From Spirochaetota bacterium (GTDB taxonomy: Bacteria > Spirochaetota > UBA4802 > UBA5550), in assembly GCA_017999915.1 (NCBI GenBank), contig JAGNKX010000001.1, forward strand, positions 558,001-622,000: a stretch of DNA of 64,000 nucleotides. The letters are read 5' to 3'. The notes under the pieces were generated by a model. That model had not been told where the DNA came from and made no database searches. It saw only the letters and a program-made list of their open reading frames with translations. Positions 36,646 to 39,735 of this stretch are shown here, piece after piece. A program made the position numbers and the translations under genes. Each line of letters starts with the position of its first letter. The stretch's first letter is position 1.

Positions 36646-37500
36646 ATGCTATATTCACGGAATGACATAACAAGGACCTATGAACAGGTTCATGATCTCC
36701 TGCTCACAAGATATATCATCAAAACATATTCGATGAATAAGACGGACATACGTGATGTCGCGCTGAAAGACCTTGATTGCGGAAATATTAAAAAAGTGCT
36801 GGAACTGGGATGCGGCTATGGCTTTTTTATTGAAAAGCTTAAAAATAGGCTTAATGATGGGGCGGTGATAATAGGGATTGACATGGTGGAAAACAATAGG
36901 GAGCCCTTTCTACATTCTGTTTCGTCAATACAATATAAAGGTGAATTCATAACAGGGAATGCAGATATAATTAAACAAATGGCGAAAGAATCCATTGATA
37001 TGATAATAACAAGTTATTCATTATACTTTTTTCCCCATCTTATTCCGGAGATTTCACGAATTCTGGCTCCGGACGGAGTTTTCATTGCCATAACCCATAG
37101 CAAGAATACGCTGCAGGAAGCAATGAATTTTATATGCGCTTGTATGAATTCCGTGGGTTTTAATAATATGAACGAAACGTCTCTCAATAAATTATTTTCA
37201 GCATTTTCCATGGAAGATGGCCGTTATCAGCTGGGACAATATTTTAATAGCATAGAACGCCTGGATTTTCCCAATGCCATGGTTTTTCCGGCAGAGCATG
37301 TCAATGATTTCATTTTTTATATTAACAAAAAGAAGAACCTGATTTATAAAGAAGTCATGGAATTGATGCCAGATAGACTTGATGATGTGCTCGCTTGCGT
37401 TGAGACGAAGATATTCGATTATGTTAAGATGAATGGTAAAATCATATTAAATAAAGATGACGCGATTTTCAGATGCCATAAACCGATATCACGCCAATGA
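36646..37500 (+). CDS. Class I SAM-dependent methyltransferase
   Basis: A 284-residue protein with a Rossmann methyltransferase core. Motif I is VLELGCGYGFFIEKL (about 50-64), followed by GIDMVENN with the acidic ribose-binding residue, an ITGNAD segment, DMIITSYSLYFF (motif IV region) and LAPDGVFIAIT. It lies directly right of the origin. Its last codon overlaps the NUDIX gene start (ATGA), so the two are translationally coupled. The C-terminal part (about 180-284) is unassigned and may set specificity. The substrate is not known. Confidence 0.8.
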   Translation: MLYSRNDITRTYEQVHDLLLTRYIIKTYSMNKTDIRDVALKDLDCGNIKKVLELGCGYGFFIEKLKNRLNDGAVIIGIDMVENNREPFLHSVSSIQYKGEFITGNADIIKQMAKESIDMIITSYSLYFFPHLIPEISRILAPDGVFIAITHSKNTLQEAMNFICACMNSVGFNNMNETSLNKLFSAFSMEDGRYQLGQYFNSIERLDFPNAMVFPAEHVNDFIFYINKKKNLIYKEVMELMPDRLDDVLACVETKIFDYVKMNGKIILNKDDAIFRCHKPISRQ

Positions 37501-38504
37501 AAAAAAGAAGACAATACTGTTCATATTGCGGGCAGCCCGTGACAACGAAAGAACAGGACGGAAAATCTCGGGATTTCTGTCCCTCTTGCAATATATTTTA
37601 CTATGACAATCCCCTTCCCGTTGCCTGCACGATCGTGGTAAACGATAAAAGAGAGGTTCTTCTAGTACAGAGGAAAAAGGATCCCTATAAGGGAATGTGG
37701 TGCCTCCCCATCGGTTTTGCCGAAACCGGAGAGGAAGTGACTGAAGCTGCATTGCGGGAATTACAGGAAGAGGCCGGTGTTGAAGGGGAGATCCTCAGGC
37801 TCATCGACGTGGATACTGTCGATAATTATTTTTATGGCAGCCTTGCCATCGTAACCTATGAAGTGAAAGTGACGGGCGGTGAGGTCTGCCCGGGAGATGA
37901 CGCATCGGATGCCCGCTTTTTCCCCATTTTAGAACTCCCCCCCCTGGCATGGTCTTCCAATGAAAAGGCGATCACTATTTTTATCAAACTGTATAAAGAC
38001 TCCTGGGCCATGGTGGATTCCTTCAGGCAGCTTTACCCTGAGCTCAATGCCCGTGACTCTTTCACGCAGGTCACCGATGAGCAGAAGCAATTATTGTCAA
38101 ATGTCCTGATAAAGATGCTTAATACCGATAACGTGGAAATGACACATCGATGGAGCAGTGAAATATCAGTGAAAGTTCCGGTTTTGGAACCATATCTGGA
38201 CATTCTTGTGGATATTAATGGCAAAATTATTCAGTCCATCCAGAACCACCTCCAGGGAGTCATCAAGGGGAACGATTATTCGGATTTTATTCCGACAGGC
38301 AGAGACCTTCTAAATGCCCGTGTGCCGTTGCCGGAGTTATTGACAGCCCTTGCCCTCAGCAGAAGGACCATATGGACCCATGTGATAAAAAAGAGAATCC
38401 TTGCATCGCCTCTGGAGATATATACCACCCTTGAGCTGAATAACCGCATAATATTCATTTATGACAGAATCATTTATTTTATTGCCAAAGGATATAACGA
38501 ATAA
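37497..38504 (+). CDS. Zinc-ribbon NUDIX hydrolase fused to RsbRD-like helical domain
   Basis: A 335-residue fusion. Residues 8-31 form a zinc ribbon (C8, C11, C28, C31), as in NADH pyrophosphatase-like NUDIX enzymes. The NUDIX box is complete, G73-x5-E79-x7-REL-x-EE-x-G94-V, so nucleoside-diphosphate hydrolysis is expected (ADP-ribose or NADH are possible substrates). Residues about 185-335 are all-helical. They end in ARVPLPELLTALALSRRTIW and IYDRIIYFIAKGY, resembling the RsbRD N-terminal sensor fold of stressosome-type proteins. Such a pairing is unusual. It overlaps the upstream methyltransferase by 4 bases. Confidence 0.8.
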   Translation: MKKRRQYCSYCGQPVTTKEQDGKSRDFCPSCNIFYYDNPLPVACTIVVNDKREVLLVQRKKDPYKGMWCLPIGFAETGEEVTEAALRELQEEAGVEGEILRLIDVDTVDNYFYGSLAIVTYEVKVTGGEVCPGDDASDARFFPILELPPLAWSSNEKAITIFIKLYKDSWAMVDSFRQLYPELNARDSFTQVTDEQKQLLSNVLIKMLNTDNVEMTHRWSSEISVKVPVLEPYLDILVDINGKIIQSIQNHLQGVIKGNDYSDFIPTGRDLLNARVPLPELLTALALSRRTIWTHVIKKRILASPLEIYTTLELNNRIIFIYDRIIYFIAKGYNE

Positions 38505-38510
38505 AAAATT

Positions 38511-38710
38511 TTAGCTGTTTGCTGAAAAACAGCAAACTGCTAAACGATACATGGATGTACCGCCATTTTTCGAGACATTGGCCGAGAAAAATGTGACGTT
38601 TGACGAATTCACTTCGTAAAACCGACATGTGCTGGACAGGATGTCCGAATGCCGACGCAGCGCAGGATGCGCTAAAAAGCGTCGGCAAAAACTCCAAGGA
38701 GGGAGTTTTT
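38511..38710 (+). ncRNA. Possible CsrA-binding (CsrB/RsmZ-like) structured RNA
   Basis: This 200-base stretch is a chain of hairpins. It starts with TTAGC-GTTTGCTG/CAGCAAAC-GCTAA (38511-38543). TACA-TGGA-TGTA follows (38548-38559), close to the CsrA selection consensus. GGAC-AGGAT-GTCC (38634-38646) and AGCGC-AGGAT-GCGCT (38659-38673) each show CAGGATG in a loop, the repeat that defines E. coli CsrB. The last is enclosed by GCCGACGC/GCGTCGGC. A terminator whose loop is AAGGAG ends it. No promoter was identified, so it may be a 3' extension of the NUDIX transcript. Alternatively it is a dispersed intergenic repeat. Short frames here are not credible. Confidence 0.4.
38687..38710 (+). terminator. 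Rho-independent terminator after the hairpin array
   Basis: AAAAACTCC (38687-38695) pairs perfectly with GGAGTTTTT (38702-38710) around the loop AAGGAG, giving a stem ending in a U run on the plus strand. Confidence 0.7.
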
Positions 38711-38765
38711 CTGGATACTGTTAGATGGAATCTGCATCATCCGCTCAATAGAAGAAACGTGGTAA

Positions 38766-39344
38766 TTGGTAGTAACAGAATTGATACAAAAAAAGATTCT
38801 TATCCGAGGCGGCAGCATCCCCGCCGGATATGGTGTGGATAAGTCCTATGTGGATATCATCCGGGAAAAGATACAGGACGCTGAAATCATCAACAGATCA
38901 CGGGTAAAGGATAATTCTTTTCAGGGAGTATGGACTTTTTCTGAAGATATTGATCGCTATAAGCCTGATATCTTCGTGCTTCACTTTGGCATCGACGACG
39001 CGTACCAGCCGGTTTACCGGTCAGAATTCAAGGAGAACCTTGTGCAGATTGTCAGGCTTGCCAGAAAAAGATTCAATCCTGAAATAATCTTATTGACCTC
39101 ACATCCTTTTGAGAATCCCTATGATATGGAAATGATCTACATCTACTACCGGGTGATCCGTGAAGTGGCTGTTGATCTCCAGTGCGACATGGTTCCTGTC
39201 CATGTATTATGGATGGGGATTATCGAAGAAAAAGGGAAAGCAATTTCGGATTATGTACTGGAAGATTGCCGGTATCCCAATGAGCGGGGTCATGAATTGT
39301 ATGCTGATTCGGTATTACATAAATTAAAGGAAAAGTTATCCTGA
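38766..39344 (+). CDS. SGNH/GDSL-like hydrolase fold protein
   Basis: A 192-residue protein with traits of SGNH esterases. The first block is IRGGSIPAGYGV, with Ser in the GDS position. The third block reads HFGIDDAYQP, where GxND is usual, and the last is DCRYPNERGHELYAD, giving the D-x-x-H-like pair with His. The second (Gly) block is not obvious. Lack of the Asn in block III makes hydrolase activity uncertain. The start is a TTG at 38766, 56 bases after the terminator; a second in-frame TTG at 38781 is possible. No signal peptide is seen. Confidence 0.6.
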   Translation: MVVTELIQKKILIRGGSIPAGYGVDKSYVDIIREKIQDAEIINRSRVKDNSFQGVWTFSEDIDRYKPDIFVLHFGIDDAYQPVYRSEFKENLVQIVRLARKRFNPEIILLTSHPFENPYDMEMIYIYYRVIREVAVDLQCDMVPVHVLWMGIIEEKGKAISDYVLEDCRYPNERGHELYADSVLHKLKEKLS

Positions 39345-39384: not shown

Positions 39385-39735
39385 ATGTCAGTAATTATCA
39401 AAGACATTAAAAAGAATAACAATGAAATAATTCGTATCGAGGTATCGGAATTCAAGGGTCGTGAGCTGATCAATGTGAGAATATGGTATCAGGCCATCGA
39501 CAGCGGCAGCGGCGACCTGGTATACAAACCGACGCAAAAAGGAATTACACTGAATATAGCTGAATTTGAAGAGCTCAAGGATGGGATTGAAAAACTCGGT
39601 AACTATATACAGGATCAGCTTACCGGCAACAAGCCGAAGCAGCCGGGGGAAGAAAAGCCGGATAAAGAAAAAAAAGCAAAGGCTGAGAAAAAAGAAAAAA
39701 AGGAAGCTGAAGTTGAGGATGATGTTGATGATTAA
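39385..39735 (+). CDS. PC4/YdbC-like ssDNA-binding protein with charged tail
   Basis: A 116-residue protein. Residues about 14-72 match the PC4 (p15) transcriptional coactivator fold: IEVSEFKGRELINVRIWY, then KPTQKGITLNIAEFEEL. Bacterial PC4 homologues are dimers that bind single-stranded DNA or RNA. The last 35 residues are a Lys/Glu repeat tail ending in acidic EVEDDVDD, comparable to the acidic tails of SSB proteins. GGAGGGATAT precedes the ATG. It sits 3 kb from the origin candidate. A nucleic-acid-binding role is likely; its target is not known. Confidence 0.8.
   Translation: MSVIIKDIKKNNNEIIRIEVSEFKGRELINVRIWYQAIDSGSGDLVYKPTQKGITLNIAEFEELKDGIEKLGNYIQDQLTGNKPKQPGEEKPDKEKKAKAEKKEKKEAEVEDDVDD

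What the first reader, a model, noticed from the sequence alone, without database searches (positions are those of the whole stretch)
38511..38710. Chain of CAGGATG hairpins: possible CsrA-sponge RNA
Seen: four consecutive hairpins with GGA in the loop (TACA-TGGA-TGTA, GGAC-AGGAT-GTCC, AGCGC-AGGAT-GCGCT, and the terminator loop AAGGAG) within 163 bases on one strand. Known: CsrB-type RNAs carry CAGGATG repeats in hairpin loops and bind CsrA. Spirochaetes encode CsrA, but I recall no established CsrB/RsmZ RNA in them. Inferred: this is such an RNA, or a 3'-UTR sponge of the NUDIX gene. A dispersed repeat is the main alternative.
Basis: partly seen in the sequence, partly recalled or inferred. 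Interest (0 to 1): 0.7.

Follow-up and report, generated by a model that had tools for sequence, protein, structure and literature searches.

The report
Scattered predicted decoys for regulator CsrA
This spirochaete genome carries over 70 scattered copies of a paired-hairpin module whose loops match the known landing site of the regulatory protein CsrA, so when transcribed they would likely soak up CsrA, a job that other bacteria give to a few dedicated small RNAs.

Summary
The four GGA hairpins are there (38548-38710), but in a dispersed repeat, not a single-locus RNA. The element (38511-38725) has imperfect terminal inverted repeats; I aligned 21 copies, 5 long and 16 short, and a congener lacks it at the orthologous site. 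Only the long form holds the two CAGGATG hairpins. They form a 61-nt module: loops 26 nt apart, the second hairpin nested with an A-rich bulge. An unrelated repeat family also exists with and without it. A covariance model gives 79 matches in this genome (73 at E below 0.01) and matches in 33 of 46 genomes of the order. Stems covary; loops stay A(N)GGAN with N free: in 19 copies found by plain similarity, AGGA is intact in all 38 loops. Non-spirochaete hits of the loop pattern do not pair. Five of six flagellin leaders here carry two A(N)GGAN hairpins 22-27 nt apart, the CsrA arrangement, and csrA lies beside fliW. I conclude: a lineage-specific, repeat-borne module predicted to dock CsrA dimers, likely a dispersed decoy. 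Transcription and CsrA binding are untested.

The parts
38511..38725 (+). Dispersed hairpin element, long form, with imperfect ~10-bp terminal inverted repeats (TTAGCTGTTT at the left end, ATACTGTTAGA at the right end; family consensus TTAGCAGTTT...AAACTGTTAGA)
   Evidence: Copies in own genome; 21 aligned copies, 5 long and 16 short; absent at the orthologous site of congener G003
38510..38544 (+). Hairpin 1, no GGA loop (TTTAGCTGTTTGCTG-AAAAA-CAGCAAACTGCTAAA)
38548..38559 (+). Hairpin 2, loop ATGGAT; weak stem in this copy; GGA lost in 3 of 21 copies here and in both copies read from another species
38564..38593 (+). Hairpin 3, no GGA loop
38597..38623 (+). Hairpin 4, no GGA loop (approximate ends)
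38629..38689 (+). Two-hairpin module R1 (61 positions), the conserved covarying cassette
38634..38646 (+). Module hairpin A, GGAC-AGGAT-GTCC (predicted CsrA site 1)
38651..38686 (+). Module hairpin B: outer stem 38651-38658/38679-38686, inner hairpin AGCGC-AGGAT-GCGCT 38659-38673 (predicted CsrA site 2), bulge AAAAA 38674-38678
38687..38710 (+). Hairpin 7, loop AAGGAG; A(N)GGA kept in 18 of 21 copies; terminator-like by eye, not reported by the terminator scan
37497..38504 (+). Upstream NUDIX gene; the element starts 7 nt after its last base
38766..39344 (+). Downstream GDSL-like lipase/acylhydrolase gene

Best explanation
The feature is the long form of a dispersed hairpin repeat that carries a conserved two-hairpin module, and that module is predicted to bind a dimer of the regulator CsrA and, when transcribed, would likely act as one of over 70 scattered decoys for it. 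Shown: the repeat family; the module as a cassette present or absent in two unrelated repeat families and spread over the order; stem covariation with A(N)GGAN loops kept and the N free; csrA beside fliW; dual A(N)GGAN hairpins in five of six flagellin leaders. Inferred: the GGA strand acts as single-stranded RNA; one CsrA dimer bridges the two loops; the copies, transcribed by read-through from whatever genes they land beside or from promoters of their own, together lower free CsrA and so relieve targets such as flagellin mRNA, beside or instead of control by FliW. Also inferred: in the window's family the module was added to a short element, because long copies lack the first four bases (CCTG) of the last hairpin's left arm while keeping the CAGG partner.
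For: Dispersal and two forms. A second, unrelated family: 19 long copies with the module and 9 short copies read without it. Spaced-loop pattern 61 times in the own genome against 2 for the reversed control. In 392 genomes of the phylum 22 have the strict pattern: 19 of 46 in the own order, 3 of 346 outside; control 1. Pairing was not part of the pattern, yet three-helix pairing holds in 27 of 84 spirochaete-group instances and 0 of 50 others; mean pairs 3.5/4, 2.8/3, 3.8/6 against 1.7/4, 1.1/3, 2.5/6. Covariation score 0.664 against 0.158 in shuffles (27 sequences) and 0.629 against 0.149 (88 distinct matches), 0 of 500 shuffles reaching it in either. Model matches: 79 in the own genome at E up to 0.1, 73 at E up to 0.01; 33 of 46 genomes of the order, 19 of 20 in the family. 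Loops: in 19 copies found by plain similarity AGGA is intact in both loops of all 19; of the 73 core columns only four vary in more than one copy, namely the N of loop B, the N of loop A and one base pair that changes on both sides. In the model matches the A-loop is A(N)GGAN in 77 of 85 with letters and the B-loop in 79 of 88. In the same family's other hairpins loops swap between ATGGAT, ACGGAT, AAGGAT, AGGGAC and AGGAT (13 of 14 copies with that hairpin), and 9 of 9 short copies keep an A(N)GGA(N) apical loop. G-U against A-C cells 11:1 with each helix scored in modules chosen on the other, 19:6 in the larger set. CsrA keeps L4 and R44 (sequence; residues from PMC7652899) and matches RNA-bound homologue 2jpp. 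Loop spacing 26 nt lies in the published bridging range of 10-63 nt. Flagellin leaders: 5 of 6 have a distal A(N)GGAN hairpin plus one over the Shine-Dalgarno, 22-27 nt apart, against 2 of 264 sampled genes with both (that sample contains two of the flagellin genes). Chains of four loops spaced 26-31-26 in G008.
Against: No transcript and no binding data. Module orientation relative to neighbours is random and positions turn over between species, as for selfish repeats. In the window's own family GGA is lost in hairpin A of 2 of 5 long copies, in hairpin 2 of 3 of 21 and in hairpin 7 of 3 of 21; both copies read from another species lack GGA in hairpin 2. Most module loops are five-nt AGGAN, while most SELEX ligands had six-nt loops and short stems. 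Both strands fold and some modules overlap or form inverted pairs, so palindromic DNA is part of the picture. G-T pairs also occur in single-stranded DNA, and the G-U excess falls to 41:29 if the two weak pairs are kept. The measure 'pairs changed on both sides' is less distinctive: 1 of 500 and 43 of 500 shuffles reach it. Genome G032 (95% complete) has 5 weak matches but no csrA found. Hexaloop ANGGAN hairpins alone are not clearly enriched in the 400-kb sample (rank 15, 50 and 13 of 256). One flagellin leader has no such hairpins, and in another (L385) the lowest-energy fold pairs the distal GGA. No Rfam family reaches its gathering score at the module.
Confidence: 0.6

Rival explanations
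1. Selfish palindromic DNA repeats (MITE- or REP-like) whose hairpins are recognised as single-stranded DNA by a transposase; the GGA loops are the transposase's mark and have nothing to do with CsrA.
For: Terminal inverted repeats, presence/absence at an orthologous site, many intergenic copies, random orientation, position turnover, both-strand folding and inverted pairs. Six Y1 transposase matches in the genome.
Against: None of the six Y1 loci carries a module in its flanks of up to 1.5 kb (best model match 12.3 bits, E 0.14; one locus is cut by a contig end); one module lies about 1.8 kb from a Y1 gene, about what chance gives by my estimate. The module sits in ten flank-similarity groups, six of them with two or more copies. 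The loop rule A(N)GGAN with free N and a five/six-nt switch matches CsrA, and the same hairpins stand in flagellin leaders.
Confidence: 0.23
2. Cis-acting CsrA sites: each element puts the neighbouring gene (for example NUDIX) under CsrA control through its 3' or 5' UTR.
For: The window copy starts 7 nt after the NUDIX gene on the same strand; the loops are CsrA-type.
Against: Gene orientation around modules is even: 16/14/14/14 over the four arrangements among 58 usable modules. The same gene pair lacks the element in a congener. Of six modules with a matching flank, one or two have a GGA element at the same place in the other species (judged by eye).
Confidence: 0.09
3. Structured transcription terminators or mRNA stabilisers spread by repeats; the GGA loops are incidental.
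For: Strong hairpins, one ending in TTTTT; in the own genome 24 of 38 usable modules lie between genes of opposite orientation.
Against: Does not explain AGGA loops kept with variable stems, the fixed 26-nt spacing or restriction to one order. The terminator scan did not report the + strand hairpin.
Confidence: 0.08

Closest known systems
CsrB/CsrC and RsmX/Y/Z decoy RNAs of Gammaproteobacteria
   Same: Several hairpins with CAGGA(U/A/C)G or ANGGAN loops; up to four per element here; expected to bind CsrA dimers (PMC7652899 passages).
   Different: Not one or two dedicated genes but over 70 dispersed modules on several repeat families; fixed two-hairpin architecture with nested stem and A-rich bulge; the genome has FliW; a BarA-UvrY link was not examined; no Rfam match at gathering score (RsmY 17.2 bits against 57).
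CsrA sites in flagellin (hag/flaB) leaders
   Same: Two A(N)GGAN hairpins 22-27 nt apart in five of six of this genome's own flagellin leaders.
   Different: The leaders stand in front of a gene with one loop over the Shine-Dalgarno; the modules are dispersed with no fixed gene.
REP/BIME elements with RAYT transposases, and MITEs
   Same: Short dispersed palindromes, inverted pairs, terminal inverted repeats.
   Different: No module found in the flanks of six Y1 transposase matches; the constraint sits on apical loops, not on a tetranucleotide before the stem (REP definition recalled).
CsrA-like ncRNA predicted in Leptospira biflexa
   Same: A predicted CsrA-regulating RNA in a spirochaete with fliW beside csrA (passages of PMC4863578 and PMC8668096).
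   Different: One predicted locus; no dispersed, covarying module is described in the passages read.

Membership tests
CsrB/RsmZ-type CsrA decoy RNAs | Multiple A(N)GGA motifs in hairpin loops | tested here: met
   Two per module, four in the window element (one weak), chains of four in G008
CsrB/RsmZ-type CsrA decoy RNAs | Sequence/structure match to a curated family | tested here: not met
   No CsrB/Rsm match at gathering score in the window or ten other loci scanned; RsmY at 17.2 of 57 bits, E 0.032
CsrB/RsmZ-type CsrA decoy RNAs | Dedicated, independently transcribed gene | tested here: inconclusive
   Dispersed repeat, absent in a congener at this site; promoter scan 1 weak site against 1.3 in shuffles; no RNA-seq at hand
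CsrB/RsmZ-type CsrA decoy RNAs | Binds and sequesters CsrA | not testable with these tools
   csrA with L4 and R44 is present; binding needs the bench
REP/RAYT system | Elements flank a RAYT (Y1_Tnp) gene | tested here: not met
   0 of 6 Y1 loci within flanks of up to 1.5 kb
MITE | Short non-coding element with terminal inverted repeats in many copies | tested here: met
   21 aligned copies of the TTAGCAGTTT...AAACTGTTAGA element
MITE | Target-site duplication and an autonomous partner transposon | tested here: inconclusive
   No clear duplication by eye in the flanks; of six partial-copy regions fetched only L324 was read for ORFs, with no obvious transposase by eye

The most novel reading that the evidence does not exclude
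A diffuse CsrB: mobile repeats have spread a CsrA-dimer docking cassette through the chromosome, so that the CsrA pool of a FliW-bearing spirochaete lineage is buffered by dozens of scattered decoys whose joint output tracks genome-wide read-through transcription rather than one dedicated small-RNA promoter.
Probability: 0.35. Interest if true: 0.88.

Novelty: new variant of a known kind. Interest (0 to 1): 0.75.

Why it matters
The review passages read here describe CsrA control by decoy RNA for Gammaproteobacteria and by FliW for other bacteria, and say that whether FliW and sRNAs act together in any species remains to be determined (PMC7652899). This lineage has csrA-fliW plus a predicted CsrA-docking module in dozens of copies, which makes that question directly testable. 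It would also be a case of a regulator's binding site spread by repeats that may titrate the regulator, and it adds a covariation-supported structured module that matches no Rfam family at its gathering score.

Tried and rejected
A dedicated sRNA at this locus: rejected because of dispersal and the missing element in congener G003. A 3'-UTR sponge of the NUDIX gene: no orientation bias of modules. RAYT/REP link: no module beside the Y1 genes. Spread outside the lineage: the genome-contig scan gave 82 stretches (80 listed by name); 50 instances from loci listed as non-spirochaete do not pair. Viral carriage: 5 contigs with the pattern, about what chance gives by my own rough estimate, none matched by the model. 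Autonomous partner of the element: six regions around partial copies were fetched, only L324 was read for ORFs; not pursued. Rfam at relaxed threshold: weak hits only at the window element. TwoAYGGAY motif: only a table line was seen (PMC2864571), so no comparison was made. Structure prediction and the protein-database search were not used.

Caveats on counts. One search scored 40 of 65 first-look candidates, 150 of 2864 and 40 of 90, so copy numbers are lower bounds; of the 79 matches, six lie between E 0.01 and 0.1 and some of these overlap stronger matches on the other strand. The 27 sequences of A1 were chosen for pairing, so the percentage paired there is inflated; the 88 distinct matches of A2 are aligned to the model and lean towards it. 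In one search the group called spirochaete (84) holds two loci (L258, L259) that the listing did not name, and three single hits from outside the order (L149, L150, L151); instances too close to a contig end were dropped. The loop count (14 copies) used loci mostly fetched with patterns that require GGA; one search repeats it on 19 copies fetched by plain similarity. The first G-U/A-C count was made on sequences chosen with G-U allowed; one search repeats it without that bias. In one search two weak pairs (columns 5-21 and 35-73) were left out before the count. One search used 98 modules; 40 overlap an ORF of 80 aa or more (many probably spurious, some from non-spirochaete loci) and orientation rests on the other 58. 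One search covers 20 loci of G002/G003; synteny of the six with a matching flank was judged by eye, and one of the six (L370) lies beside a flagellin gene, where the match may be a paralogue.

Full report
What is at the locus. Between a NUDIX gene (37497-38504) and a GDSL-like hydrolase gene (38766-39344; families) lies a chain of seven hairpins. The + strand folds 5.7 standard deviations better than shuffles, but the other strand does too, 8.2.

It is a dispersed repeat. Searching the own genome (G000, 5.46 Mb, 29 contigs) with 38480-38720 gave 50 matches, several being two pieces of one copy. I fetched 20 places and aligned them with the window: 21 copies share the consensus ends TTAGCAGTTT and AAACTGTTAGA, 38511 to 38725 in the window. 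Five are long (window, L009-L012); sixteen lack the stretch with the two CAGGATG hairpins. In the short form the last hairpin is complete (CCTG...CAGG); in the long form CCTG is replaced by the insert while CAGG (CTGG in the window) stays, so I infer that the module was added to a short element. At the orthologous site of congener G003 (77% identical NUDIX protein) the gap between the conserved blocks is about 85 nt against 296 in the window and the element is missing; a short AAAACTGTCAGG there may be a remnant. The long form also exists in another species (L245, L249).

The insert is a cassette in its own right. GGACAGGATGTCC with up to one mismatch occurs 66 times in the own genome against 10 for the reversed control. 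In an unbiased sample of twenty 20-kb stretches (400 kb, 44 kb intergenic by my ORF mask) AGGAN is the commonest of 256 pentaloop classes in intergenic hairpins (15 of 616 at stem 4 or more, 9 of 236 at 5) and tied for first at 6 (5 of 98); in genic hairpins it is 1.5 to 2 times the class mean. ANGGAN hexaloops alone are not clearly enriched. Reading the hits showed pairs of loops 26 nt apart with different stems. The pattern CAGGANG-N(5-7)-TGC-N(8-12)-CAGGANG occurs 61 times against 2 for the control. A second, unrelated repeat family, searched by plain similarity, also has two forms: 19 long copies with the module and, among the loci read, 9 short copies in which the same place is a small hairpin with an A(N)GGA(N) loop (AACATGGATGTT, AACATGGACGTT, AACAGGATGTT, TACAGGATGTA). 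So the same module is present or absent in two unrelated families.

Structure and covariation. The pattern contains no pairing, so pairing is an independent test: 27 of 84 spirochaete-group instances have all three helices in the fixed register and 0 of 50 others do. In 27 aligned, ungapped instances chosen for pairing (A1) 13 of 18 pairs change on both sides; the covariation score is 0.664 against 0.158 in shuffles and at most 0.09 in slid controls; RNAalifold predicts nearly the same structure unaided. In 88 distinct matches of the covariance model R1 the score is 0.629 against 0.149; the cruder measure 'pairs changed on both sides' is reached by 1 of 500 and 43 of 500 shuffles. Loops in these matches: A-loop A(N)GGAN in 77 of 85 with letters, B-loop in 79 of 88. 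The cleanest test is the 19 long copies of the second family, fetched without any demand on loops: AGGA is intact in both loops of all 19, and of the 73 core columns only four vary in more than one copy: the N of loop B (T6 A2 G9 C2), the N of loop A (G13 T6), and the two sides of one stem pair that change together (C-G, A-T, one G-T). In 14 of these copies a further hairpin is alignable; 13 have loops ATGGAT, ACGGAT, AAGGAT, AGGGAC or AGGAT, so only N positions and the five/six-nt length vary. G-U cells exceed A-C cells 11 to 1 when each helix is scored in modules chosen on the other and 19 to 6 in the larger set without two weak pairs (41 to 29 with them). This points to the GGA strand acting single-stranded, without separating RNA from single-stranded DNA.

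Distribution. R1 finds 79 matches at E up to 0.1 in G000, 73 at E up to 0.01. In the order 33 of 46 genomes match at E up to 0.001, 19 of 20 in the own family; G008 has 52, G002 48, G001 31. The strict pattern occurs in 22 of 392 genomes of the phylum, 19 of 46 in the order and 3 of 346 outside; the control occurs once. Named records with the pattern include Spirochaetes metagenome-assembled genomes such as RBG_16_49_21 and RBG_13_51_14. The 59 G000 modules that I could cluster by flanks fall into ten groups of 26, 17, 4, 3, 3, 2, 1, 1, 1, 1. Some G008 elements hold four GGA hairpins spaced 26-31-26. Orientation relative to neighbouring genes is even, 16/14/14/14 of 58, and positions turn over: of six G002/G003 modules with a matching flank among my G000 loci, one or two have a GGA element at the same place (judged by eye).

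Why CsrA. The loops agree with the CsrB repeat CAGGA(U/A/C)G, the SELEX consensus RUACARGGAUGU and the ANGGAN loop whose N is variable, and two sites 10-63 nt apart can be bridged by one dimer (passages of PMC7652899); most SELEX loops had six nt, most module loops have five. csrA was found in 37 of 39 genomes (missing in G012, 72% complete, and G032, 95% complete). In G000 it follows fliW and two flagellar hook-associated genes (flgK and flgL by eye); Pfam FliW 1.3e-38 and CsrA 6.7e-25. CsrA has L4 and R44, the residues that the review calls critical, and matches solved homologues including RNA-bound 2jpp. The strongest link is internal: of six flagellin genes (seven Flagellin_N matches, the seventh being the gene before fliW) five have a distal A(N)GGAN hairpin at -35 to -39 with a stem of 4-8 pairs and a second one over the Shine-Dalgarno with 3-8 pairs, 22-27 nt apart; L386 has neither, and in L385 the lowest-energy fold pairs the distal GGA. 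Of 264 sampled genes 3 have the distal hairpin and 2 have both, and the sample contains two of the flagellin genes. So the likely CsrA targets of this genome use the same hairpin pair that the module presents.

How it most likely works. A transcript through the GGA strand folds into hairpins A and B; a CsrA dimer is predicted to bridge the two loops; with over 70 modules the copies would compete with flagellin and other leaders. Shown: sequence, structure, distribution and the flagellin parallel. Inferred: transcription, binding, titration. Random orientation and turnover keep a purely selfish DNA reading open; against it, no module lies in the flanks of the six Y1 transposase matches and the loop rules are those of CsrA.

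Print check. Searches for CsrA with intergenic repeats, repetitive extragenic palindromes, sponge, mobile or transposable elements, FliW with CsrB and spirochete, CsrA with Leptospira, and structured RNA candidates with Spirochaetes (listings only, except the passages cited) showed no such module among the papers listed. A CsrA-like ncRNA was predicted in L. biflexa (passages of PMC4863578; PMC8668096). Passages of PMC4679880 reject CsrA for a different intergenic repeat. No Rfam family matches the element at its gathering score; the best relaxed hit by E-value is RsmY, a CsrA-family decoy, on the GGA strand at 17.2 bits against 57.

Noticed in passing
L382, L383, L384, L385, L388 (flagellin leaders, G000): Five of six flagellin genes have dual A(N)GGAN hairpins with different stems, one over the Shine-Dalgarno: predicted CsrA control of several flagellins in this lineage.
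   Followed up: yes
L408, L409, L411, L412, L414-L418 (short copies of the second family): Where the long copies hold the module, the short copies hold a small hairpin with an A(N)GGA(N) loop, so the cassette sits inside a GGA hairpin.
   Followed up: partly
L298, L337, L338, L300, L295, L369: Some modules occur as overlapping or inverted pairs, so a transcript from either direction would carry a GGA module.
   Followed up: partly
L326, L327, L329 (G008): Tandem modules give four GGA hairpins spaced 26 (27 in one)-31-26 nt.
   Followed up: partly
G032 (handle): 95% complete genome with 5 weak module matches but no csrA match; assembly gap or real loss.
   Followed up: no
L291:1161-1361: Cobalamin riboswitch (95.9 bits) about 140 nt from a module, on the opposite strand.
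   Followed up: no
window 39385-39735: PC4-like (PF02229) protein gene, a single-stranded nucleic acid binding family (function recalled), two genes downstream of the element.
   Followed up: no
G005:C22, G005:C50 and several G012 contigs: Modules lie close to contig ends, so repeat copies probably break these assemblies and copy numbers may be underestimated.
   Followed up: no
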